Below are positions 661-59,500 of a DNA stretch of 64,000 nucleotides, one piece after another. Both the position numbers and the translations under genes were made by a program. Each line of letters opens with the position of its first letter. Within the stretch, counting starts at the first letter, position 1. Source of the DNA: Isoperla grammatica (taxonomy: Eukaryota > Arthropoda > Insecta > Plecoptera > Perlodidae); contig OX246739.1 of NCBI GenBank assembly GCA_945910005.1, forward strand, positions 3,626,001-3,690,000, in the 5' to 3' direction. The notes below the pieces were generated by a model. It had not been told where the DNA came from and searched no databases. It worked only from the letters and a program-made list of their open reading frames with translations.

Positions 661-1009
661 GCGCAAGATGTACTTTTTTGGCTCTCGTAGGCTATTCGTG
701 GAAGAGTATAGCGGTAAACGGGATTATGCAAAGGCATGTATAACAATGATTTTGGACCAGGGTTACATCGGCAGAATTGCTGCAGACGGCGTCAGTGGCG
801 CCGCGACGCCACCTGACGCCGCCACACGACGCCACCGAACGTTTTGGCTTATAACTTTTACACCGTTTGTTCTACAGAAAAAACAAAAATGATTTTTTAT
901 TCAGTTTTTAAATACAAATCGATTGGTACCAAAAACGTTATGATTAGATGAGCGTAGCGAAGCAGAGTGAATCTCACATTTCAACTCGATTGGCGCTTTG
1001 TCTTTGATT

Positions 1010-1619
1010 GTGCACAAAAGTTTGTTCGTCACGCACAGGTCACACGGCTTAACGGATTTGACTGAAATGTTAGATAAACTCTTGTGACTACAAGTATAGA
1101 TGCTGTTAACATAAACAAGAAAATCCGTTGAGATTCTAACCTACAAAAAATTAATTAGTAAAAAATATCGAGTTTTTATTTTTTTGTTCTTCGCGCACAG
1201 GTTAAACTTCTTAACGGATTAGGCTGAAATTTTAAGTCAACACTCTGGACTATTAAAGTAGATGCTGTTAGCATAACCAAGAAAATCCGTCAAGATGCCA
1301 ACCTACAAAAAATGTATTAGTGAAAAATATCGAGTTTTAATTTGCTTTATTAAAATTTATGGACGGATTGAAATATTTTTTTTATATTTATGTCCAAAAT
1401 AAGAATATTGACACGTGATTAAAGTTTGAAAGTAGTGACTTGAACCGCCATTTTGTAAAAAAATATTTTGTTTTTTTTGTATGCAAAAGTTTGTTCGTCG
1501 AGCACAAGTCAAACGGCTTGACGTATTTGGTTGAAATTTTCAGTGAACACTCATGCTCACTGCACAAGATGCTGTAAGCATATCCAGCAAAATTCGTCAA
1601 GATGGCAACCTACAAAAAA
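1010..1619 (+). repeat. Three degenerate ~140-bp sub-repeats inside the left arm
   Basis: Segments at about 1010-1152, 1182-1314 and 1484-1619 share the order: 'gttcgtc..gcaca', an 'acggattt..ctgaaat' core, 'gatgctgt.agcata', and a terminal 'aacctacaaaaaa'. They are mirrored in the right arm between about 3540 and 4140. Reiterated sub-repeats inside terminal arms are typical of fold-back elements, where they help arms expand and convert. The copies are diverged, so this internal amplification is older than the arm duplication. Confidence 0.6.
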
Positions 1620-1800
1620 ATAACTACTTAAACAAATAAAATATTTTATTTATTTTTTAAATTAAAACTTGCCGTAGGATTTAAATAATTTTTTTAAATG
1701 AATTGCAGAATAATAGTGTCAACAAATGACAGGAGTTTTTAAATTGTTTTGTTAACGGACATCTTGTAACCAAATATTTGTTTATTTACTTCAATATATT

Positions 1801-2070
1801 TTGCTATTGTCAACTTTTTTGCTAATATCTGTACTCCCGTTTGGGTCCTGGGTAGAATTTGGCCCAGGTAATATATCTGTCGATTATAAGAGGCGAGAAA
1901 ATAAGGGCCCTCCTTTCTCTGTCCTCCAAGGAGCATTAAAAGAACGCATTCCTGTCCACCACGATAAGTTAACAGTTGCTGACAAGAGCATATGCTTCGG
2001 TAGGGCCACCGTAGCCGGACAGGTCGAAGCCAAACGAAACGAAACTATAACAGGTAAATGCCTTGTTTGA
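1801..2070 (+). other. Open frame of 89 codons inside the left arm, mirrored at 3083-3352 on the minus strand
   Basis: A frame of 89 codons is open in both arms, but the first codon is not ATG and no known domain is recognised. Comparing the two arm copies, I see five amino-acid differences (Y/S, E/A, K/I, G/E, T/I) and no obvious excess of silent changes, so there is no sign of protein-level constraint. The opposite strand is also open over much of the same stretch. I regard it as arm sequence that happens to be open, or an eroded transposon exon, not a functional gene. Confidence 0.3.
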
Positions 2071-2407
2071 TAAATAAAAAAAAATCGGTTAACGCAGAGC
2101 GTTTTCTTAGTCATTAAATATTATGACTGGTTATATCATTACAACCTTACAAAAACGATTTTTTTAAGTAATGAGTGCTATCAGCAGTCACTCTCTTGGG
2201 GAGGTGTCCCCCTAGCTAGTAAAAATATATTCGTTATGTCGTTGTTACTTGAATCCTACACGACGTGGTGACCGGTTCGCCCAACAGTTTAAACTGCGCA
2301 TACCTTAAAAAATTAATAGTAGTTTATTTTTAAATCACATTCTTATACCGTTGTCTACGCATTTTCATTACTCCCCTATTCATACTGCCATAATAGAACT
2401 TGTCAAA

Positions 2408-2767: not shown

Positions 2768-4469
2768 AGTATGAATAGGGGAGTAATGAAAATGCGTAGA
2801 CAACGGTATAAGGATGTGATTTAAAAATAAACTAGTATTAATTTTTTAAGGTATGCGCAGTTTAAACTGTTGGGCGAACCGGTCACCACGTCGTGTAGGA
2901 TTCAAGTAACAACGACATAACGAATATATTTTTACTAGCTAGGGGGACACCTCCCCAAGAGAGTGACTGCTGATAGCACTCATTACTTGAAAAAATCGTT
3001 TTTGTAAGGTTGTAATGATATAACCAGTCATAATATTTAATGACTAAGAAAACGCTCTGCGTTAACCGATTTTTTTTATTTATCAAACAAGGCATTTACC
3101 TGTTATAATTTCGTTTCGTTTGGCTTCGACCTGTTCGGCTACGGTGGCCCTACCGAAGCATATGCTTATGTCAGCAACTGTTAACTTATCGTGGTGGACA
3201 GGAATGCGTGCTTTTAATGCTCCTTGGAGGACAGAGAAAGGAGGGCCCTTATTTTCTCGCCTCTTAGAATCGACAGATATATTACCTGGGCCAAATTCTA
3301 CCCAGGACCCAAACGGGAGTACGGATATTAGCAAAAAAGTTGACAATAGCAAAATATATTGAAGTAAATAAACAAATATTTGGTTACAAAATGTCCGTTA
3401 ACAAAACAATTTAAAAACTCCTGTCATTTGTTGACACTATTATTCTGCAATTCATTTAAAAAAATTATTTAAATCCAACGGCAAGTTTTAATTTAAAAAA
3501 ATAAATAAAATAGTTTATTTGTTTAAGTAGTTATTTTTTTGTAGGTTGCCATCTTGACGAATTTTGCTGGATATGCTTACAGCATCTTGTGTAGTGAGCG
3601 TGAGTGTTATCTGAAAATTTCAACCAAATACGTCAAGCCGTTTGACTTGTGCTCGACGAACAAACTTTTGCATACAAAAAAACAAAATATTTTTTTACAA
3701 AATGGCGGTTCAAGTCACTACTTTCAAACTTTAATCACGTGTCAATATTCTTATTTTGGACATAAATATAAAAAAATATTTCAATCCGTCCATAAATTTT
3801 AATAAAGCAAATTAAAACTCGATATTTTTCACTAATACATTTTTTGTAGGTTGGCATCTTGACGGATTTTCTTGGTTATGCTAACAGCATCTACTTTAAT
3901 AGTCCAGAGTGTTGACTTAAAATTTCAGCCTAATCCGTTAAGAAGTTTAACCTGTGTGCGAAGAACAAAAAAATTAAAACTCGATATTTTTTACTAATTA
4001 ATTTTTTGTAGGTTGGAATCTTGACGGATTTTCTTGTTTATGTTAACAGCATCTATACTTGTAGTCACAAGAGTTTATCTAAAATTTCAGCCAAATCCGT
4101 TAAGCCGTGTGACCTGTGCGTGACGAACAAACTTTTGTGCACAATCAAAGACAAAGCGCCAATCGAGTTGAAATGTGAGATTCACTCTGCTTCGCTACGC
4201 TCATCTAATCATAACGTTTTTGGTACCAATCGATTTGTATTTAAAAACTGAATAAAAAATCATTTTTGTTTTTTCTGTAGAACAAACGGTGTAAAAGTTA
4301 TAAGCCAAAACGTTCGGTGGCGTCGTGTGGCGGCGTCAGGTGGCGTCGTGGCGCCACTGACGCCGTCTGCAGCAATTCCGCCGATGTAACCCTGGTCCAA
4401 AATCATTGTTATACATGCCTTTGCATAATCCCGTTTACCGCTATACTCTTCCACGAATAGCCTACGAGA
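2768..4469 (-). repeat. Right arm of the 1.7-kb inverted repeat
   Basis: Reverse complement of 683-2386, starting AGTATGAATAG and ending CCTACGAGA. It is 1702 bp long against 1704 bp for the left arm, so indels are few. A transcript crossing both arms would fold into a very long near-perfect hairpin. Confidence 0.9.
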
Positions 4470-11599: not shown

Positions 11600-11616
11600 A
11601 GCCGGTGTGACGCACC

Positions 11617-14600
11617 ATGGATGACGTCACGTGGCGTCTGCGTCTGTCGCTGCTGGCGTTGCTGCTCGGCCTCGTCAGCGCCACGACGCCCGAAGCGCCC
11701 ACGTCCGAGTCGCCCGACTTCAAGTTCACCCGGCCCGAATACAACGTCTCGATATCGGAGAACTCTGTGGGCAAGACCTTCGTCACGCCCGAGGAGCACA
11801 TGGGCATCAGCATCCTGGACCCAGAGCTGGAGATCCGCTACCGCGTCATCGCCGGGGACAAGGACAAGTTCTTCAAGCCGGAGGAGCGCGTCGTGGGAGA
11901 CTTCTGCTTCCTGCTCCTGCGCACCAGGACCGGGAACATGGACGTGCTCAACCGGGAGAGGAAGGACCGGTACGTCCTGGACGTGCGCGCTACGGGGACG
12001 AAGCGCGAGGGGAAACACAAACAAACAACAGTCGAGACGGACGCGAAGGTCATCGTCACCGTTTTAGACACCAACGACTTGAATCCTCTGTTTTACCCCA
12101 CCGAGTACGAGGAAACGGTCCCCGAAGACACCCCCCTCCACAAGAGCATCCTCAGAGTGTCCGCCGAGGACGCCGATCTCGGCCTCAGCGGGGAGATCTA
12201 CTACAGTTTCCCGGAGCCGACGGAACAGTTTGCGATCCACCCGATGACCGGAGTCGTCTCCCTGACCCGACCTCTGCGATACAACGAGAAGTCTATCCAC
12301 GAGCTGACGGTGATGGCGCAGGACCGCGGCGCACTCTTCAGGTCCGGCAATGTCGGCAAGGCGAGCACCGCCAAGATTAAGATCAACGTGCAACAGGTGA
12401 ACCTGTTCAGCCCCGAGATCTACGTCCACCACCTGCCGGACATCGTGGAGCACTCGAACGCGGACATCTACGCGATCGTGCGGGTTGTGGACAAGGACCA
12501 GGGCAAGCACGGCGAGATAGAGAGCTTGGAGATAACCGACGGTGACCCAGACGGACATTTCAGGATAACGAGCGCGGAGGGTACGGGCGGGCAGCGAGGT
12601 GAATACAATATTGAAGTGCTGAGGCTGCTGGACCGAGAGATGTCCCCTCAGGGCTACAATCTATCCCTGAGGGCGACCGATAAGGGGGTCCCGCCTCGAC
12701 AGGGCTACAAGTCGGTGACGGTTCACCTTGCCGACCTCAACGACAACGCGCCAGTCTTCGACAGAGAGATATACGAGGTGGAGGTACCCGAAACGGCGCC
12801 CGTCAATACACCGATCATCAGGCTGAAAGTGACGGACGCCGACGAAGGTAAAAACGCGCAAGTTGTTCTAGAGATTGTGGGCGGTAACGAAGGGGGTGAG
12901 TTCCACATTAACCCGTACACGGGTATGTTGTACACCAACACGCTGCTGGACGCTGAGACGAAGGCGTTCTACACTCTGACCGTGTCGGCCATAGACCAGG
13001 GCAACACGGGCACGAGGAAACAGTCCTCCGCCAAGGTCAAGATAAACGTCATGGACACCAACGACAACGACCCCATCTTCGACACCCCTGAGATGTCCGT
13101 GTGGATCGACGAGAACGAACCGGCGGGCACGTCCGTGATGAAGGTCAACGCGAGGGACAGAGATTCGGGGGAGAACGCTTACATATCTTACAGCATCGCT
13201 AACCTGAACCCGGTGCCTTTCGAGATCGATCATTTCTCCGGTGTGGTTCGTACGACCTCGATCCTTGATTACGAGTCCATGAAGCGGGAGTACGTGCTGC
13301 GAATCCGCGCGAGCGACTGGGGTCTGCCGTATCGCCGGCAAACCGAAATGCAACTGAAAATCAGAGTGCGCGACGTTAACGATAATCGTCCACAATTTGA
13401 AAAGGTCGACTGCACGGGTCATGTTCCTCGATACGTGTCGATAGGCACGGAGATCATTACGTTATCGGCTATCGACTTCGACGCCGGAAACATAATTAGT
13501 TACCGGTTGGTATCGGGTAACGAGGACGGCTGCTTCGCCCTGGACATCACGTCGGGTACGTTGACTGTGACGTGCGACTTGATGGACGTGAAGGTGACGG
13601 AGAGGGAGGTTAACATCACGGCGACGGACGGGACGCACTTTGCCGACGTGGTGCGCGTCTTGATCCACCTGGTGAACGCCAAGCGGAGCCTCGGCTCGCC
13701 GGGCCGCCTGCTCAACGACGAGACGGGCGCCTTCGACTGTCGGGACACGGGGGTGGCGCGGAGGCTCACGGAGACGCTGGCGGCGGCGGAGAGGAACAAC
13801 ATGCCCGGCAGGGGTCACGAGGAGTTCGCCATGATGCCCAGCAGGTACGGCGACAACGTCCACGCGCCAGAGTTCATCGATTTCCCCCTTGAGATCAAAG
13901 TGAACGAGTCGGTTCCATTGGGGACGTCTTTGGCGAAGATCAGGGCACGAGACAGAGATCTGGGTTACAACGGGAAGCTGATTTTTGGCATTTCTAACGG
14001 TGATGAAGATTCTGTGTTTCGATTGGATCCTGACAAGGGCGATTTGAAAGTTATCGGTTATCTAGATCGGGAACGAGAGAGTGAATACCTGTTGAACATC
14101 AGTGTGTACGATCTTGGACGGCCGCAGAAATCTTCATCTCGTTTCCTGCCAATCACCGTCCTCGACGTCAATGACAACCCGCCAAAATTTGAAAAGGCCG
14201 TTGCCAGTTTCCACGTGACGGAAAACGCGCACAACGGCACCGCCATCTTCCGTGTGAACGCGACCGACGCGGACCTCGGCGAGAACGCTCGGGTCACGTA
14301 CTCCATGGTCACGGACACTGTCGACTTCGCCGTGGACCCGGCGAGCGGCATCCTGAGCGTCGCCGCGAGGCTCGACCGCGAGAAACAGGAGGTCTACGAA
14401 CTTAAGTTACGCGCGACCGACGCCGGAGGTCAAGACCTGGACAAACCGGCGCTCTACTCCGACGCTCTCGTCCGAGTGACGATCGACGACGTCAACGACA
14501 ACGCGCCAACCTTCGCGTTGTCCAGTTACAACGTCAAGATACGCGAGGACGTCCCCGTCGGTAGCGTCGTCGCCGTCGTGAGCGCCACCGACCCGGACAT

Positions 14601-15001
14601 GGGGCTGGGCGGCGAAGTGCGCTACTTCCTGGTCAACGTCGGGGAGGGAGACTCCGTGTTCACCATTGACCGCGTCTCGGGCACGATTAGGACGGCTGAA
14701 AGTCTGGACTTCGAGGAGCGCCAGGTCCACAGTCTGACAGTGAGGGCGCGCGACCGGGGGAGTCCGTCGCTCTCCTCCGAGACGACGGTGCTCGTGGAGG
14801 TCGTGGACGTTAACGAGAACCTCCACGCGCCGGAGTTCTCTGACTTTGTGGTGGCGACGTCGGTAAAGGAGAACCAGCCGGTCGGTACCCTGGTGACGAC
14901 GGTGAAGGCTTCTGATGACGACCCTCCTGGTGACGACTCCAAGGTGTCCTACTCCATCCGAGGCGGTGACGGCATCGGCCTCTTCTCCATCGACAATGAA
15001 G
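11617..15001 (+). CDS. kug: Fat-like atypical cadherin (kugelei / FAT1-3 family), first coding exon, partial
   Basis: Encodes 1128 residues and the first base of the next codon; the protein continues in exons beyond this window. The start is ATG 11617 (GCACCATGG), giving a signal peptide: a hydrophobic LSLLALLLGLVSA core (about residues 11-22), with likely cleavage near residue 22. The ectodomain has nine full cadherin repeats at about 36-158, 163-265, 268-380, 385-488, 492-594, 600-745, 755-858, 864-966 and 970-1074, plus a partial tenth. Calcium-site motifs are intact in most: DTND 151, DLNDN 373, DTNDN 480, DVNDN 586 and 850, DVNDN 958, DVNEN 1064, with LDRE-type motifs between. The 'ENSVGKTFV...MGI' opening, 'GDFCFL', 'FEIDHFSG' and the interrupted sixth repeat are the FAT1/2/3 and fat-like signature rather than Drosophila Fat or Dachsous. 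The single large first exon also matches family gene structure. Seven N-glycosylation sequons are visible (for example N43, N348, N666). Family members act at the cell surface in planar polarity and epithelial migration. Codon use is strongly GC-rich, unlike the AT-rich flanks. Confidence 0.93.
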
Positions 15002-15007
15002 GTAAGG
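15002..15007 (+). other. kug: Splice donor of the first coding exon
   Basis: GAAG|GTAAGG. Homology to FAT-family proteins stops exactly here (…SIDNEG), and the next in-frame codons (Lys-Glu-stop) are not family sequence. The splice leaves phase 1. Confidence 0.9.
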
Positions 15008-15009
15008 AA

Positions 15010-15051
15010 TAGGACATACATTTATATGTAGGGATTATAGTTATAAATAAA
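15010..15051 (+). terminator. In-frame stop and AATAAA just inside the long intron (possible intronic polyadenylation site)
   Basis: If the donor is not used, translation adds Lys-Glu and stops at TAG 15010-15012. A canonical AATAAA is at 15046-15051, about 45 nt after the donor. Premature cleavage here would give a secreted ectodomain without transmembrane or intracellular parts. AATAAA is common in AT-rich DNA, so this is only suggestive. Confidence 0.3.
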
Positions 15052-33898: not shown

Positions 33899-35512
33899 GC
33901 TACGATGCACGGTTTAGCTGTAAAATGCAATTATAAATTGATCCCAAGGCAGCCACTAGTGTTGTATGGGAGTCAAGTGAGGGTGCCCGTGTGATGCCAG
34001 AATAAGCCCCGTTTCACTCTACGATGCACGGTTTAGCAGTAAAATGCAAATAAAATTGATCCAAAGGTAGCTACTATTGTTATATTGGAGTCTAGTGAGG
34101 GTGTCTGTGTGATGCCAGAATAAGCCCCGTTTCCCACTACGATGCACGGTTTAGCTGTAAAATGTAATTAAAAATTGATCCCAAGGCAGCCACTAGTGTT
34201 GTATGGGAGTCTAGTGAGGGTGCCCTTGTGATGCCCGAATAAGCCCCGTTTCGCTCTACGAGACACGGTTTAGCTGTAAAATGCAATTAAAAATTTATCC
34301 CAAGGCAGGCACTACTGTTGTATGGTAGTCTAGTGAGGGTGCCTGTGTGATGCCAGAATAAGCCCCGTTTCGCTCTACGATGCATGGTTTAGCTGTAAAA
34401 TGCAATTATAAATTGATCCCAAGGCAGCCACTAGTGTTGTATGGGAGTCTAGTGAGGGTGTCTGTGTGATGCCAGTATAAGCCCCGTTTCGCTCTACGAT
34501 GTACGGTTTAGCAGTAAAATGCAAATAGAATTGATCCAAAGGTAGCTACTATTGTTATATTGGAGTCTAGTGTGGGTGTCTGTGTGATGCCAGAATAAGC
34601 CCCGTTTCCCACTACGATGCACGGTTTAGCTGTAAAATGTAATTAAAAATTGATCCCAAGGCAGCCACTAGTGTTGTATGGGAGTCTAGTGAGGGTGCCC
34701 GTGTGATGCCAGAATAAGCCCCGTTTCGCTCTACGAGACACGGTTTAGCTGTAAAATGCAATTAAAAATTTATCCCAAGGCAGGCACTACTGTTGTATGG
34801 TAGTCTAGTGAGGGTGCCTGTGTGATGCCAGAAAAAGCCCCGTTTCGCTCTACGATGCACGGTTTAGCTGAAAAATGCAATTAAAAATGGATCCGAAGGC
34901 AGCCACTAGTGTTGTATGAGAGTCTAGTGAGGGTGTCTGTGTGATGCCAGAATAGGCCCCGTTTCCCTCTACGATGCACGGTTTAGCAGTAAAATGCAAT
35001 TTTAAATTACTCCCAAGGCAGCCACTAGTGTTGTATGGGAGTCTAGTGAGGGTGTCTGTGTGATGCCAGAATAAGCCCCGTTTCCCACTACGATGCACGG
35101 TTTAGCTGTAAAATGCAATTAAAAATGGATCCGAAGGCAGCCACTAGTGTTGTATGGGAGTCTAGTGAGGGTGTCTGTGTGATGCCAGAATAAGCCCCGT
35201 TTCCCTCTACGAGACACGGTTTAGCTGTAAATGCAATTAAAAATTGATCCCAAGGCAGGCACTACTGTTGTATGGTAGTCTAGTGAGAGTGCCTGTGTGA
35301 TGCCAGAATAAGCCCCGTTTCGCTCTACGATGCACGGTTTAGCTGTAAAATGCAATTAAAAATGGATCCGAAGGCAGCCACTTGTGTTGTATGGTAGTCT
35401 AGTGAGGGTGTCTGTGTGATGCCAGAATAAGCCCCGTTTCCCTCTACGAGACACGGTTTAGCTGTCAAATGCAATTAAAAATTGATCCCAAGGCAGGCGC
35501 TTCTAGGGTCTG
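33899..35512 (+). repeat. Satellite-like array, 14 copies of a ~118-bp unit with higher-order structure
   Basis: Units begin near 'tacgatgcacggtttagc' at about 33899, 34017, 34135, 34254, 34373, 34493, 34612, 34732, 34850, 34969, 35089, 35208, 35326 and 35445, the last truncated. Diagnostic variants show copies 1-4 repeated as copies 5-8 (a ~474-bp four-unit block). Copies 11-12 repeat as 13-14. The array ends abruptly in GC-rich sequence at about 35512. Confidence 0.92.
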
Positions 35513-39790: not shown

Positions 39791-39794
39791 ATTC

Positions 39795-40099
39795 ATGTTG
39801 GACATTCCTGCTTTAGGGTGGCGCCAAGATTAATATTGGACATTCCTGGTTGAGGGTGGCGCTAAGATTCACGTTGGATATTCCTGGTTGAGGGCGGGGC
39901 TAGACATTCATGTTGGACATTCCTGGTTTAAGGTAGCGCTAAGATTCACGTTGGACATTCCTGGTTGAGGGTGGCGCTAAGATTCATGTTGGATATTCCT
40001 GGTTGAGGGTGGCGCTAAGATTCATGTTGGATATTCCTGGTTGAGGGTGGCGCTAAGATTCATGTTGGATATTCCTGGTTGAGGGTGGCGCTAAGATTC
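39795..40099 (+). repeat. Tandem array, 8 copies of a 38-bp unit
   Basis: The unit reads atgttggatattcctggttg followed by agggtggcgctaagattc. Copies 6-8 are identical and earlier copies carry scattered changes, a gradient typical of recent local expansion at one end. Confidence 0.92.
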
Positions 40100-40170
40100 A
40101 CGACAATGCCCCAATCTCTGGGGACGGTGGGGTCGTTAGCAGGCGTCTCTTTGTGCGGGGAGATCGATTG

Positions 40171-52000: not shown

Positions 52001-53420
52001 CAATTTAACCCTCCAGCCTTTACTAACAGCTTTCGGACATTTCTTCCCAGCTATCCAGACACCCTACTTATGTAGTTGGTCAGAGGAGCATATCAGGTAA
52101 AGCATCAGGTTCACCCTAGACCCTACAACGGGGATTTCTAAGAAACATTATTAATGATTAACTAAATAACGAATTAAAAAATATGTAGTTCGTATGGACA
52201 TAGAGTTAAGAGTTGTGTGTAGATACAAGGTTAATACTGGTGGGGTACTGTGAGCAACTGAGCAGCCATCAAGGCGAAATATCACACTTGCCATAATTGT
52301 ACGCGCACATTACTGTAGAAGATAGAAGACTGACCGACTGTCCTTGGAGGAAGAAGGTTGACTGGGCGACCTTGCCTGGTGTAGTCGCCAAGAGTTAATT
52401 GAACCAGTTAATCCGAGTAATGTAATACACGTATGTAATAATTGGTAAACAAGATTTTTAATAATTTCTTTGCAATTACTAATTTATGCGGATAATTGTA
52501 ATGGATTATTTCAACACGACTGCAAATTAGTAACCTTTAGTTAACTAAATATCTATAGCTAAGACGTAAAGTTAAAAGTGAAGACTATTGAATAATCTTG
52601 CTCGGAAGGGGTTACAGAGTAGTTTACCTAATGCAGATAAATAACTTACCCGGGTTGTCTAGCGTCCATGCTCGCAGAAAACATACAAATGCGCGAGTAA
52701 AACACAAAAAGTAAGAAGGTCGAACATAGTTCTCCAATACTTTTCACTGGCAGTGTTCTGTGTGAAGTCCCATCTCGTGTTGAATGACTGGCAACAACGT
52801 GGATGTATCCTACGTGGCTAATAAACAATGTGTACGTCTTTTTGCCTAGTTGTCAAATAACAAAGAACTGGTTACGTTTTACAAAAATTAATAATTTACT
52901 TTAGATGCTTTTAACCATCTTTGTTTTATTTTTAGTTGTGACTTCTGTGAGAGTACCGATATTCAAATGGCAGCATGCATAGAATTTATGTTTCTAAAAC
53001 ATGACTTGACTTTAATAACTCTATACATAACATGAACAATCCGAGTCTAGTGCTTGCCCTACTCAGTGCTGGCATACACATTTGTTTTCTAAAACAATTT
53101 CCATGTTTGCTGATAAGATACCCGTAAGTTTTTAGTTAATCGTGACTACAATTTTATTCGTCGTCAGTCATCACACATAGAACAGCTTCATTCGTTTTCG
53201 TTTGCCACGTTACATACATAAAAGTTAACATCCGACATAAGTAAAAAAAAGCTAAAATTAAAGAGAAAATTAAGAAAGCTACAATAATGCAATAATAATT
53301 TCAACAAAATACTTTGGGGATTAGGTTTAGTTTGCTGGTGATGTTGCAATTTTTTGTGATGTGTGTGGTACTTAATCAACAATAATAATTGATAGTTCCC
53401 CTTCCACGAAGGTAATTAAT
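49096..53420. other. Intronic sequence, no gene recognised
   Basis: It includes a strong acceptor-like site at 50285-50298 followed by 68 nt open in the cadherin phase and a weak donor. The length is not a multiple of three and the sequence is not cadherin-like. A short GCGA microsatellite lies near 51411-51426. Confidence 0.45.
51738..51800 (+). repeat. Possible tRNA-derived SINE relic
   Basis: The B box GGTTCGATACC at 51771-51781 sits in 'ggtcgggtcgctggttcgat', the usual T-arm context of arthropod tRNA-derived SINEs. No complete cloverleaf. Confidence 0.4.
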
Positions 53421-53422
53421 TG

Positions 53423-53448
53423 GTGTTTTTTTCTTGTTTCAGGTGAGT
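53423..53448 (+). promoter_or_regulatory. kug: Candidate recursive splice site (3' and 5' splice sites fused)
   Basis: The pyrimidine tract 'gtttttttcttgtttcAG' ends at 53442 and is followed without a gap by GTGAGTTG, a good donor. A branch-point-like TTAAT lies about 25 nt upstream. Joining the donor exon (…GAAG at 15001) to this acceptor regenerates a functional-looking donor GAAG|GTGAGT, the defining property of a ratchet point. It lies 38 kb into the giant intron, on the sense strand of the gene. Confidence 0.5.
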
Positions 53449-53493
53449 TGTGCAGCTGTGTGGCTGTCTTGCGCAGAGCGACCCTGGGTTCGG
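53443..53493 (+). other. kug: Candidate 51-nt RS exon / cassette microexon of the fat-like gene
   Basis: Bounded by the acceptor above and by a second donor, TTCGG|GTGAGC at 53493/53494. It is 51 nt (17 codons), entered and left in phase 1, and has no stop in the cadherin frame (reading GELCSCVAVLRRATLGS after the exon 2 base). Known RS exons work this way: a downstream donor helps define the exon, then the regenerated upstream donor removes it. Inclusion would insert 17 residues into the tenth cadherin repeat, so skipping is the more likely final outcome. No similarity to the expected family sequence is seen, so it is not an ordinary constitutive exon. Confidence 0.4.
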
Positions 53494-53967
53494 GTGAGCT
53501 TCTTACTATAGATTAGATTACCTTCCTGTCTTGAGGGGGTTCCCACACCTCGGCCCCACTCGTAGTTGTCCTATACACAACCCAAATGTACTTAACTATT
53601 AGCTGACCTACTTATATCTCCACCTAACCAAGATAATTTCCGTTACATGTAACATTTCACTTCATCTTACTTAGCTTTTACTTTATTTACTTACATCTTA
53701 GATCGTACCTTTGATTTACCTACAAAAGAAATCTTTCCCGGTAGGTGTTCGTAACCACACATATCTAAACGTTACACTGCCGTATTTTGTCTACACAACT
53801 TCCTACTTCACCACAAGACGTCTTGGTAAAAAGACGGGACCTTACGTTAGACATTCTCCTGTGCTCTCTATCTTCCCGGCTCGTTTATTTGTCCTCCACT
53901 CCGCGGAGCCGGAAGCGGAAGCGAAGAAAAGACGCCGCTACGCGTCGCGGCCCGGAGCGGTTTGTCT

Positions 53968-54117: not shown

Positions 54118-54344
54118 CGGCCATCTTGAACAATGTTTTCAAAATGGCGGTCTGGCACGGCTAGCATGGGTTTCGACGCCCTATAAATTCACTGGCGGGG
54201 GCTCGTCGAACTCCCATCCAAACCTCCGCTTGAGGGACCTTGTCAATGGTTATGTCTTCGTTCTGACTTTTCACAATGATTGTTCAAAGTTTAAAGTTTA
54301 AAGTGTAATTCTATCATAATTCAGTCGTCTATAACATCACCGTC

Positions 54345-55884
54345 ATGAGACCAACTCGTTGTGAGCTACCCCGGTTCCTGTACGACCCCGTGCATCTATG
54401 TTAGGCGATGTCGCTACCTAGCGGAACGTTCCTTGCAGCCGTGGTTCCACCTTGATGCCTCGCAGCTTCCCTTGTTCTCCGTGGACAACATCTCCTTCAT
54501 GAGACCAACTCGTTGTGAGTTACCCCGGTTCCTGTACGACCCCGTGCATCTATGTTAGGCGATGTCGCTACCTAGCGGAACGTTCCTTGCAGCCGTGGTT
54601 CCACCTTGATGCCTCGCAGCTTCCCTTGTTCTCCGTGGACAACATCTCCTTCATGAGACCAACTCGTTGTGAGTTACCCCGGTTCCTGTACGACCCCGTG
54701 CATCTATGTTAGGCGATGTCGCTACCTAGCGGAACGTTCCTTGCAGCCGTGGTTCCACCTTGATGCCTCTCAGCCTCCCTTGTTCTCTGTGGAAAACATC
54801 TCCTTCATGAGACCAACTCGTTGTGAGTTACCCCGGTTCCTGTACGACCCCGTGCATCTATGTTAGGCGATGTCGCTACCTAGCGGAACGTTCCTTGCAG
54901 CCGTGGTTCCACCTTGATGCCTCTCAGCTTCCCTTGTTCTCTGTGGACAACATCTCCTTCATGAGACCAACTCGTTGTGAGCTACCCCGGTTCCTGTACG
55001 ACCCCGTGCATCTATGTTAGGCGATGTCGTTACCTAGCGGAACGTTCCTTGCAGCCGTGGTTCCACCTTGATGCCTCGCAGCTTCCCTTGTTCTCTGTGG
55101 ACAACATCTCCTTCATGAGACCAACTCGTTGTGAGCTACCCCGGTTCCTGTACGACCCCGTGCATCTATGTTAGGCGATGTCGCTACCTAGCGGAACGTT
55201 CCTTGCAGCCGTGGTTCCACCTTGATGCCTCTCAGCTTCCCTTGTTCTCTGTGGGTAACATCACCTTCATGAGACCAACTCGTTGTGAGCTACCCCGGTT
55301 CCTGTACGACCCCGTGCATCTATGTTAGGCGATGTCGCTACCTAGCGGAACGTTCCTTGCAGCCGTGGTTCCACCTTGATGCCTCGCAGCTTCCCTTGTT
55401 CTCTGTGGACAACATCTCCTTCATGAGACCAACTCGTTGTGAGCTACCCCGGTTCCTGTACGACCCCGTGCATCTATGTTAGGCGATGTCGCTACCTAGC
55501 GGAACGTTCCTTGCAGCCGTGGTTCCACCTTGATGCCTCTCAGCTTCCCTTGTTCTCTGTGGGTAACATCACCTTCATGAGACCAACTCGTTGTGAGCTA
55601 CCCCGGTTCCTGTACGACCCCGTGCATCTATGTTAGGCGATGTCGTTACCTAGCAGAACGTTCCTTGCAGCCGTGGTTCCACCTTGATGCCTCGCAGCTT
55701 CCCTTGTTCTCTGTGGGTAACATCACCTTCATGAGACCAACTCGTTGTGAGTTACCCCGGTTCCTGTGCGACCCCGTGCATCTATGTTAGGCGATGTCGT
55801 TACCTAGCGGAACGTTCCTTGCAGCCGTGGTTCCACCTTGATGCCTCGCAGCTTCCCTTGTTCTCTGTGGAAAACACGGCCATT
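54345..55884 (+). repeat. Tandem array, about 10 copies of a 154-bp unit
   Basis: Units start at ATGAGACCAACTCGTTGTGA every 154 bp. They are very homogeneous, with a few shared variants (GGGTAACATCACC against GGACAACATCTCC). Each unit yields a 65-codon frame that begins at GTG and ends in the next unit. Because 154 is not a multiple of three, the frames cannot join. Identical small proteins repeated ten times are therefore an artefact of the repeat. Confidence 0.95.
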
Positions 55885-56128: not shown

Positions 56129-56515
56129 CAGTTATCTCATGTCATAATCAGTCCTATCGTCTGTAATATGGCGGTTATCTCGTGTCATAATCAGTCATAT
56201 TGCCTGTAATATAGTGGTTATCTCGTGTCATAATCAGTCATATTGTCTGTAATATAGTGGTTATCTCATGTCATAATCACTCATATTGTCTGTAATATAG
56301 CGGTTATCTCGTGTCATAATCAGTCATATTGCCTGTAATATAGCGGTTATCTCGTGTCATAATCAGTCATATTGCCTGTAATATAGTGGTTATCTCGTGT
56401 CATAATCAGTCATATTGTCTGTAATATAGTGGTTATCTCATGTCATAATCACTCATATTGTCTGTAATATAGCGGTTATCTCGTGTCATAATCAGTCAAT
56501 CTGCCTGTAATATAG
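56129..56515 (+). repeat. Tandem array, 9 copies of a 43-bp unit
   Basis: The unit reads cggttatctcgtgtcataat followed by cagtcatattgcctgtaatatag. Variants (catg/cgtg, cact/cagt, gtct/gcct) show copies 2-5 repeated as copies 6-9, a 172-bp block duplication. It lies ~250 bp after the 154-bp array. Confidence 0.95.
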
Positions 56516-59500
56516 CACTGATATTGTTTAACATGTATTGAGCGTTCTATTTGACCACACCACTAATACTGGTTGTAATCAAATGGGTGGAATAACCAGA
56601 CTCAAACAGTTTGATTAGCTGTGTTCTAATACTCACCCCCTCCTGTATGTTGCATATGTATTATTACACCCGTTAGACCCATTAAGCAAAGCAGTGCAAG
56701 AGCTTCATTTGAAATATGACAACATTGCATCATGCATATGCGGTGTTATTGTTCGATTTGCTGTACGTTGTGCATAGTCAGAAACAAATCTCATAACTAT
56801 CACTATAGTAAACCGGCATTATGTTAGATTTTTGTGAATATGAATTGTTGTAAATCTTTATTATATATTTTAACTCCCCTGGTACAAATTAAAATTGCAG
56901 ACAGACGTTTCTGTTCTGCATGCTTACGTACTTTTGCGCACTCATTAAACAAATTAATTCCATTTGGATTATGAATTAGATCTGTGATCCTTTGATACCG
57001 TTTTGACTAATTAGCTATTTATACCGTGATTTTACTTTTAAGATAACAATAATTGCGATTTTAATCCTGGAAACGAATGTTTTGCTCTTGTTTCCAATAT
57101 CGCAAATGCACATGGAAGTAATGCGATGCGCTGCAGATTGCAAAGACAAGTTGCTAACATCGGGACACATAGTCCTTACAAGTGACTTGCAGAAGCAGAT
57201 AGCAAGAACTGTGCCTGGCTCAACCGTTTACAGGAATTGAAACTGAAAACTACTACACTCAACTGAGCTCCGCGTTCAAAATTGTTGTTTAAATATTGAA
57301 TGAGAATTAAATATTGTTGTAATTGTGCCTCTCACACTACAGCTGGCAATACTGAATTGTTTGACCGCTTCGTCCGCGCGTACATTTCTGTGGCGTATTA
57401 TTTTGTTTTTTATTTTTCAATCCGAAATGCTTTTGAAAGCGTATTTTTTGTGCAAAACCGTACAAAATAGTATTTTGTAGGAATTTTACACTACGACCGA
57501 CTCGCACCTAACTATTTTTGCATTTATTTTTTGCAGCGAACTCTGTTTAAATCAACACGTTGCCGTGAAATAAATTACACATCACGCCAGAAATCAAGTG
57601 ATTTGAATAACGTAGAAGGCAGTGAAGGACAATACTTGCTTGTAAAGAGTATTCCAGCGAGGTAGGCGTCAACCCTAGTGGTCATACCAAGGAAGGAAAC
57701 ACATCACGATGCAGATGTTGAACACGGGATAAGCCTGACGTTATTGTAATTCATCATCGAGTGAAGGACGTCACAATGTAATGTTTAGTGTTTACCTACC
57801 ATTATTCGCCTCACGGACACATTAACACTGTGTAATTGTATATATATACATATGCCTTTCCTTCTGTACACCGTGATTGTTATCCGCACAGTTCGTATTG
57901 TTCTGATATGTCGTTATACGTCACATCAGATCTTCTTGATACACTTGATAAAGATATAAATGGCAATATGACACCGGAAATGGTTAAATGAACAGTTGAT
58001 GTTAACAATGTTGCGACGTTGCTCCTGGATATAGCACGATGTAGATACATTTCATTCCTCTAATAAGCAATACCGGTATGTAATATGTATTGAATTTTCT
58101 ACCCACAGTAGCTATTTTTCAAAAATTATACCGTACAAACGAAAATAATCTGTCTACAAAACATCATTCACTTAATTTTTAAATGATGTCGTGTACCAGA
58201 CATTACAACTGCCACCCTTCACGGTAGACCTACTTCATAGTCCCCTCAATCGTGAAGCATAATCAAGTTAAAGTTATGAATATTACATTTTGAGAAGGTT
58301 GGTTAGAATTAAAGGGGTAGGGGGTGTGTTTAGTGTTTAGAGCTATCTTGTTGCTGTGCAAAGATGTAGTGGAATAGAGCAGAGGGGGTTAGAAACAAGG
58401 ACACAACATTTACCGGGTCAAAGTTGAGCTGGCTGTGACTTTAGGCACCGTTGACAAACGTCCACGTTATGTTCTTGAGTTATAGTTGAGCCCATAACGA
58501 TGTTTTTGTAGTTTTTAATTAATACTAATTGTCGCGCTAGGCAAACAGCGACAGAGTGCAAAGTTTCGGGATGTAGCGCCATAACTTTCTCAATTACCAT
58601 AATCACCATTAAGTAATTAATATTTTAGCGACAACGGTCCTAGTGTAACACAACACAACGCCACAGTGGACTCGTTAATTCTGAGTCACCCGATGATGAA
58701 TCGTCGGTATTAACGCGCGTTGGAGCAACCGCATCTGTTGTGTAATAGTATTACGCTTGTTTTTGCCCGGTAGGCAAACGGTATCGTTATCCAATTTAAC
58801 TAATACTTCATCGTATGTATACTGTGTGTAGAGTAGACTAGACTAGAGTAGAAACACAAAGCCTAGGTTTATACGTGATTCAGTGTAAGTGACAACCCTG
58901 GGATTGAGAGATTTCACGTTGTTGTTCTGTCTTCTGTGATCCTCGTCATAACACGGGGATTTGGGAAGCTGGGAGGACCAGCATACATTAGCTGATGTGG
59001 AATGGAACATTATATTTTAATTTGCTGACAAATACCAAATAACATGAACACAACCATTGGAAATTAGTCCTAACACCCCAATGAGTGTTTGATTACCACG
59101 AGTTAAGCCCCAACCACATTAACGGCATCGTGATTGTAATCGTAATCCGAATACATGGTTCTTTTGGCGCTGTTCACAACTAAATCGTAATGTCGTAATG
59201 GTTGTGATGGGAAAATGTACGTTTGCTATCCCGATTCAGATAACGATGCGATTAATTAAATGGTACGTTTTAATATATTATTTACACGTTTCGAATTTAA
59301 AATTATTTTTATACAGAAGAGTTAACTTTTACATTTTCAAATCGATGTTTAGTCGCTTTATCACCATCTGTTTGTCTAACTGTGAAAATAATTACAACAC
59401 ATATCTAGGACGGGCGATGTTTTTATATTTATCTGTGCAATGTTCTAAAGCGCGTTTGTGTGTGTTTCCAATCAATTGTGTGACAGTTTATATCAACAAC

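What the first reader, a model, noticed from the sequence alone, without database searches (positions are those of the whole stretch)
53423..53499. Candidate recursive-splicing site with an in-phase 51-nt RS exon, 38 kb into a giant cadherin intron
Seen: a long pyrimidine tract and CAG (ends 53442) is fused to GTGAGT, and a second donor (GTGAGC) lies 51 nt later. The 51 nt are open in the cadherin phase. Known: insects remove very long introns in steps at such zero-length ratchet sites, and RS exons with a downstream donor are described in flies and vertebrates. Inference: the >=49-kb intron of this fat-like gene is removed stepwise here, with possible rare inclusion of 17 residues in the tenth cadherin repeat. 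I do not know of this site being reported for this gene.
Basis: partly seen in the sequence, partly recalled or inferred. Interest (0 to 1): 0.75.

Follow-up and report, generated by a model that had tools for sequence, protein, structure and literature searches.

The report
Ratchet-point chain in giant cadherin intron
The suspected splicing stepping-stone looks real, and it is the first of four evenly spaced ones in a single 190,000-base intron of an insect fat-like cadherin gene, so the cell probably cuts this intron out in five steps, as fruit flies do with their longest introns.

Summary
The motif is where described: CAG ends at 53442, GTGAGT follows, and a second donor at 53494 bounds 51 nt open in the gene's phase. 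It is the best AG|GT site on either strand of the window (10.8 bits, next 6.1); 0 of 600 simulated 49-kb introns reached it. In the held genome the next coding exon found starts at window coordinate 205223, so the intron is 190,221 nt. Its sense strand carries four standout sites, 53442, 80416, 120806 and 163519; antisense has none above 5.4. Segments are 27-43 kb, evenly spaced (P about 0.001). Each site has a weaker donor 48-57 nt downstream and a branch-like YTAAY at -19 to -26, features outside the score. Genome-wide, a pattern fitted to the four gives 244 matches against 29 reversed-pattern controls. Among the first 100 listed, neighbours within 120 kb are 21 same-strand, 0 opposite. Best reading: a Drosophila-type ratchet-point chain with cryptic RS-exons. 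Inclusion of 17 residues is possible but not indicated. RNA use and conservation between species could not be tested. New member of a known kind.

The parts
11617..15001 (+). Large coding exon of the fat-like (kugelei/Fat2-type) cadherin gene, from the first in-frame ATG to the donor; ends in phase 1
   Evidence: Open frame 11611-15012; Pfam Cadherin, 9 stretches; 81% identity to Cryptotermes and Periplaneta fat-like proteins; start codon assumed
15002..15007 (+). Donor of the giant intron (AAG|GTAAGG); the intron runs to 205222 in window coordinates (C7:3831222), 141 kb beyond the window
   Evidence: Sequence; next exon acceptor TTGTTGCAG|GAAACATCCGG ends at 205222, encoding GNIRTLATLDVESKRSYWLTV
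53416..53420 (+). Branch-like TTAAT, putative branch A at 53419
   Evidence: 4 of 4 ratchet sites have one YTAAY there, background 81 of 526 AGGT sites of the intron
53423..53442 (+). Polypyrimidine tract and 3' splice site (CAG) of the first ratchet point
   Evidence: acceptor part scores 6.0 bits
53443..53448 (+). Ratchet-point donor GTGAGT, regenerated after the first splicing step
   Evidence: donor score with AG context 8.7
53443..53493 (+). Putative cryptic RS-exon, 51 nt, open in phase 1 (GELCSCVAVLRRATLGS)
   Evidence: the other three ratchet points have RS-exons of 53, 57 and 48 nt
53494..53499 (+). RS-exon donor CGG|GTGAGC, weaker than the ratchet donor (5.3 against 8.7)
   Evidence: the only donor scoring above 3 within 10-250 nt of the site

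Best explanation
Position 53442|53443 is the first of four intronic ratchet points in a 190-kb intron of an insect fat-like cadherin gene. Proposed mechanism: (1) the RS-exon 53443-53493 is recognised between its acceptor and its own donor; (2) the upstream coding exon is spliced to 53443, which puts GTGAGT right behind the exon's AAG; (3) this regenerated donor outcompetes the RS-exon donor and is spliced to the next ratchet point at 80416, then 120806, then 163519, then the next coding exon at 205223, leaving zero nucleotides behind. Shown: motifs, positions, strand bias, spacing, RS-exon donors, branch motifs, genome-wide enrichment. Inferred: that the sites are used, their order, and exon definition.
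For: Four sense sites score 12.1, 11.2, 10.8 and 8.2; the antisense maximum is 5.4. Simulated 190-kb introns give 0.075-0.1 sites >=8.2 each (40 simulations per order, orders 2 and 4). A rule without matrices (YAG|GTRAG, >=11 of 15 Y upstream) gives 5 sense, 0 antisense in the intron. Each of the four has one donor scoring >3 within 10-250 nt, at 48-57 nt; of the other 525 sense AGGT sites in the intron 10 have a donor >=4.0 at 45-60 nt (Fisher 3e-7). YTAAY at -19 to -26 in 4 of 4, background 81 of 526. Spacing CV 0.15, P about 0.001. Pattern fitted to the four: 244 matches against 29 reversed controls in 874 Mb. Neighbour pairs <=120 kb apart among the 100 listed of 244: 21 same-strand, 0 opposite. 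In 20 other sites sampled evenly, 9 have a donor >=4.0 at 30-80 nt against 24 of 525 background sites (Fisher 4e-7). The flanks are not one repeat. Prior: 63-70% of fly introns over 40 kb have recursive sites (PMC6110457).
Against: No RNA evidence of any step. No DNA of related species, so conservation is untested. Matrices were typed from general knowledge. The genome pattern was fitted to the four sites. 11 of 20 sampled genome sites lack an RS-exon donor >=4.0 at 30-80 nt, and at the narrower 45-60 nt only 4 of 20 have one. At a cut-off of 4.4 the fourth fat-like site (4.37) drops out and 3 of 4 remain (Fisher 3e-5). The fourth site (8.2) is not far above an antisense chance hit of 7.9 in the 71 kb downstream; the matrix-free rule at >=11 also finds one antisense site there and none on the sense strand. 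In the intron that rule also finds 33093, which I do not count. GTGAGT is less canonical than the published consensus gtaagt (PMC2773006). Segments of 27-43 kb are longer than the 9-15 kb typical of flies (PMC6110457).
Confidence: 0.9

Rival explanations
1. Expressed RS-exon (Ubx m1/m2 type): the 51-nt exon is sometimes kept, adding GELCSCVAVLRRATLGS between IDNE and GNIRTL in the tenth cadherin repeat.
For: 51 nt, in frame and open; three of the four RS-exons in this intron are multiples of three and all four are open in phase 1, against 36-42% open at random for these lengths. Ubx m1 and m2 are also 51 nt (PMC8605326).
Against: RP donor stronger than RS-exon donor at all four sites, which in general goes with skipping (PMC8605326, with exceptions there such as Ubx-m1 and msi). 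The second RS-exon (53 nt) would break the frame. In the genome sample 3 of 9 lengths are multiples of three, as by chance. None of the seven orthologous proteins that continue past this junction shows an insert in the residues printed.
Confidence: 0.12
2. Ordinary cassette or cryptic exons whose first bases happen to read GTRAGN; the ratchet donor is not used.
For: Good acceptors, branch motifs and downstream donors would be seen for ordinary exons too.
Against: All four start with a consensus donor; a chance GTRAG at four of four short exons in one intron is unlikely, and the even spacing and genome-wide CAG|GTRAG excess are not predicted.
Confidence: 0.05
3. Chance matches in a long AT-rich intron, possibly copied by a repeat.
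For: One antisense site scores 7.9 in the 71 kb downstream, so isolated sites near 8 do occur by chance.
Against: 0 of 600 simulated 49-kb introns reach 53442. Strand bias, spacing and RS-exon donors all point the other way. 53300-53700 matches once in the genome search, which skips very common words, and the flanks are unrelated beyond the motif.
Confidence: 0.03

Closest known systems
Drosophila intronic ratchet points (Ubx, kuz, osp, fz, Ten-m; zero-nucleotide recursive splicing)
   Same: Pyrimidine tract, CAG|GTRAG, very long intron, several sites per intron, sense strand only, cryptic RS-exon of about 50 nt with a weaker donor.
   Different: Another insect lineage; segments of 27-43 kb against 9-15 kb in flies (PMC6110457); use not shown by RNA.
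Ubx m1 and m2 microexons (expressed 51-nt RS-exons)
   Same: 51 nt, open, in a very long intron, ratchet donor at the 5' end.
   Different: The Ubx exons are deeply conserved and known in mRNA (PMC8605326); nothing shows that here.
RP-site enrichment in large introns of mosquito, bee and beetle (PMC2773006, 2009)
   Same: Sense-strand excess in introns over 50 kb: 0.48-1.03 per 100 kb in those insects and 2.2 in fly; here 4 in 190 kb, 2.1 per 100 kb (different scoring).
   Different: That study is statistical; here one complete chain is laid out, with its RS-exons, in one gene.

Membership tests
Drosophila-type intronic ratchet point | Juxtaposed 3' and 5' splice sites, (Y)nNCAG|GTRAGT | tested here: met
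Drosophila-type intronic ratchet point | Lies inside a very long intron (>40 kb), more than chance and only on the sense strand | tested here: met
   190,221-nt intron; four sense sites >=8.2, antisense maximum 5.4
Drosophila-type intronic ratchet point | Cryptic RS-exon of about 50 nt with a weaker downstream donor | tested here: met
   51, 53, 57, 48 nt; ratchet donor stronger in 4 of 4
Drosophila-type intronic ratchet point | Sites break the intron into similar segments | tested here: met
   CV 0.15, P about 0.001; segments longer than in flies
Drosophila-type intronic ratchet point | Conservation of the SA|SD motif in related species | not testable with these tools
   The held genome has no relatives
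Drosophila-type intronic ratchet point | Saw-tooth nascent RNA, exon-to-ratchet junction and lariat reads | not testable with these tools
Expressed RS-exon (Ubx type) | RS-exon present in mature mRNA and conserved in sequence | not testable with these tools
   No RNA or relatives; indirect signs lean against it

The most novel reading that the evidence does not exclude
In this large-genome insect, probably a polyneopteran, giant introns are removed through genome-wide chains of ratchet points set at roughly 25-45 kb in this gene, a ruler several times longer than in flies. The roughly 35-kb intron just downstream in the same gene has no such site, as if introns below one ruler length need none. 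Ratchet spacing would then scale with genome or intron size rather than being fixed by the spliceosome.
Probability: 0.35. Interest if true: 0.65.

Novelty: new member of a known kind. Interest (0 to 1): 0.5.

Why it matters
Recursive splicing of long introns is worked out mainly in Drosophila. A complete, regularly spaced four-site chain in one gene of a distant insect with a much longer intron, plus a genome-wide same-strand clustering of such sites, makes the spacing rule directly testable with ordinary nascent RNA-seq, and would help to link exons across introns where gene models tend to break off.

Tried and rejected
Chance: rejected by simulation, by the antisense control and by the genome-wide reversed-pattern control. 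Repeat or tRNA-derived origin of the GC-rich 53443-53560 stretch: no second copy in the genome search, no Rfam match at the gathering score and no tRNA in the window. A next exon hidden in the window or in the following 120 kb: tblastn with six orthologous tails found none. Other candidates considered: 94831 (weak donor GTGAAT, donor at 67 nt), 40195 and 38228 (no downstream donor), and 33093 and 64530: not counted as ratchet points. A positive control in the teneurin gene and a mitochondrial species check were asked for repeatedly and never answered. A count of mine was wrong and is mended: I took the fourth site as passing a donor cut-off of 4.4, but its donor scores 4.37; one search repeats the count at 3.0, 4.0, 4.3 and 4.4, and the report uses 4.0. 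The conclusions and odds do not change.

Full report
The site. Searches confirm the letters and coordinates: GTGTTTTTTTCTTGTTTCAG ends at 53442, GTGAGT follows at once, and GTGAGC begins at 53494. It is the only CAG|GTRAGT on either strand of the 64 kb. With splice matrices typed from general knowledge it scores 10.8 bits as a joint acceptor and donor; the next of 186 sense AGGT sites scores 6.1 and the best of 189 antisense sites 5.2. None of 600 simulated 49-kb introns (Markov orders 1-4, 150 each) reached 10.8.

The gene. The open frame 11611-15012 holds cadherin repeats and is 81% identical to fat-like proteins of the termite Cryptotermes secundus and the cockroach Periplaneta americana, 80% to Timema and 78% to the katydid Anabrus. 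That is the insect fat-like/kugelei gene, in what is probably a polyneopteran; the species was not identified. The exon ends AAG|GTAAGG at 15001 in phase 1. Of the 120 proteins listed, seven continue past this junction into the next cadherin sequence in the residues printed (P0098, P0103, P0111, P0112, P0114, P0115, P0116), with G(N/S/M/V)(I/V)RT at the junction. Five were aligned at another repeat and say nothing (P0040, P0104, P0110, P0113, P0120). The others stop or run into unrelated residues about here (read by eye). That search takes only proteins of 0.55-1.75 times the query's length, so truncated models are over-represented and full-length ones left out.

The intron. The window's own genome is held: 874 Mb, the window being C7:3626001-3690000. 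A search with P0116 placed later exons on C7. tblastn on fetched sequence places the next coding exon, GNIRTLATLDVESKRSYWLTV, behind an acceptor that ends at window coordinate 205222. It joins in phase 1 to read IDNE-G-NIRTL, as in the orthologs. The intron is 15002-205222, 190,221 nt. No coding exon was found in between with these queries.

A chain. Scanning 211 kb from the window start, the sense strand has four standout sites among 599 AGGT: 120806 (12.1), 80416 (11.2), 53442 (10.8) and 163519 (8.2); the next are 6.7 and 6.1. The antisense strand (586 AGGT) has none above 5.4. A rule without matrices (YAG|GTRAG with at least 11 of 15 pyrimidines upstream) gives 5 sense and 0 antisense sites in the intron: the four and 33093; at >=9 it gives 7 and 2, at >=10 6 and 1, at >=12 3 and 0. 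Simulated 190-kb introns yield 0.075-0.1 sites >=8.2 each (40 simulations per order, orders 2 and 4). The segments are 38.4, 27.0, 40.4, 42.7 and 41.7 kb. Their coefficient of variation, 0.15, is reached by about 0.1% of 200,000 random placements.

Features outside the score. Each of the four has one donor scoring above 3 within 10-250 nt, making RS-exons of 51, 53, 57 and 48 nt; the ratchet donor is stronger each time (8.70/5.30, 8.04/4.68, 7.78/6.33, 7.78/4.37). The first of these donors was part of the finding given to me; the other three were not known beforehand. At a cut-off of 4.0, 4 of 4 ratchet sites and 10 of the 525 other sense AGGT sites have a donor at 45-60 nt (Fisher 3e-7); at 4.4, 3 of 4 and 8 of 525 (3e-5). 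All four have one YTAAY with its A 19-26 nt upstream, against 81 of 526 background sites (Fisher 6e-4), and no other AG for at least 29 nt; 148 of 526 background sites have none for 20 nt. Published fly RS-exons are about 50 nt, and ratchet donors are generally the stronger (PMC8605326; introduction read and passages found).

Genome-wide controls. A strict pyrimidine pattern before CAG|GTRAGT gives 27 matches against 4 for the pattern read backwards in 874 Mb. It does not include the four fat-like sites. A pattern fitted afterwards to the four (YYYYKKTTNCAGGTRAG) gives 244 against 29. At that density 0.027 sites are expected on one strand of 190 kb; four are seen (the pattern is post hoc). Of the 244 places only the first 100 were listed. 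Among them neighbours no more than 120 kb apart are 21 same-strand and 0 opposite, or 18 and 0 without fat-like; within 200 kb 22 and 2; within 400 kb 25 and 4. Twenty of the 96 other listed places, every fifth, were fetched: 9 of 20 have a donor >=4.0 at 30-80 nt, against 24 of 525 background sites of the fat-like intron (Fisher 4e-7); 11 of 20 do not, and at 45-60 nt it is 4 of 20 against 10 of 525 (1e-3). In all nine the ratchet donor is stronger. The nine lengths are 33-72 nt and 3 of 9 are multiples of three, so no general frame constraint shows. Alignments among the flanks of these 20 and the four fat-like sites are 15-43 nt long and lie over the splice motif and its tract; the four fat-like flanks match nowhere else in the 281 kb at E 1e-3.

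Internal negative control. The following 71 kb of the gene, with several shorter introns (the longest about 35 kb between exons found by tblastn), has no sense site above 5.4, and the 5.4 is a real exon start; one antisense site scores 7.9 through a run of C. So an isolated score near 8 can be chance. The fourth site (8.2) leans on its RS-exon donor, branch motif and spacing.

Mechanism. The best reading is stepwise removal. The exon at 15001 is spliced to 53443 with the RS-exon 53443-53493 defining the site; the regenerated GTGAGT is spliced on to 80417, then 120807, then 163520, then 205223, leaving no extra nucleotides. The sites and their statistics are shown; use and order are inferred. 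In flies 63-70% of introns over 40 kb have recursive sites, removed mostly 5' to 3' in pieces of about 9-15 kb (PMC6110457; section 5 part 2 read; passages). Sense-strand enrichment of such sites has been computed for mosquito, bee and beetle (PMC2773006; section 6 read; passages).

The 17-residue isoform. It would insert GELCSCVAVLRRATLGS between IDNE and GNIRTL. It is open, but so are 41% of random 51-mers of this intron. Three of four RS-exons here are multiples of three, one is not, and donor strengths favour skipping. I put it at about 0.12.

Prior reports. The rows listed by searches for recursive splicing with ratchet, kugelei, cadherin, locust, Anopheles, insect and intron size name nothing on this gene by title or abstract start: 10 of 10 papers listed; 30 of 301; 15 of 15,248, too loose to inform; 20 of 27; 1 of 1; 3 of 3; 4 of 4; 2 of 2. 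'kug' and 'fat2' have no occurrence in the main text of PMC6110457 and 'kug' none in PMC8605326. Supplementary tables and subscription papers such as Duff et al. 2015 (recalled, not seen) were not searched, so a fly kug site may be listed there.

Noticed in passing
C7:3887028-3905553 (window coordinates 261028-279553, outside the window; L026-L027): An 18.5-kb array of about 205 copies of a 90-bp unit (98% alike) made of the end of an intron, its 3' splice site and the start of the coding exon VRAQDHGVPLNKSH with a stop, running into the true exon of the same gene: some 200 near-identical decoy acceptors ahead of the real one (203 exact copies of a 20-nt acceptor string).
   Followed up: partly
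Window coordinates 208536-209721 (C7:3834536-3835721): Nine copies of the acceptor and 5' part of the following coding exon (QVFVSVENENDNIP) in a tandem array ending at the real exon; a second such exon-start array in the same gene.
   Followed up: partly
window 54333-55876, 33900-35496, 56131-56516, 39791-40100: Tandem arrays with units of 154, 119, 43 and 38 bp inside the giant intron.
   Followed up: no
window 683-2386 and 2768-4469: A 1.7-kb inverted repeat, 98% identical, upstream of the coding exon.
   Followed up: no
window coordinate 94831 (C7:3720831): A weaker AG|GT site with a good acceptor but a poor donor (GTGAAT) and a TTG|GTAAGT donor 67 nt on; possibly a cryptic exon or a decaying ratchet point.
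   Followed up: partly
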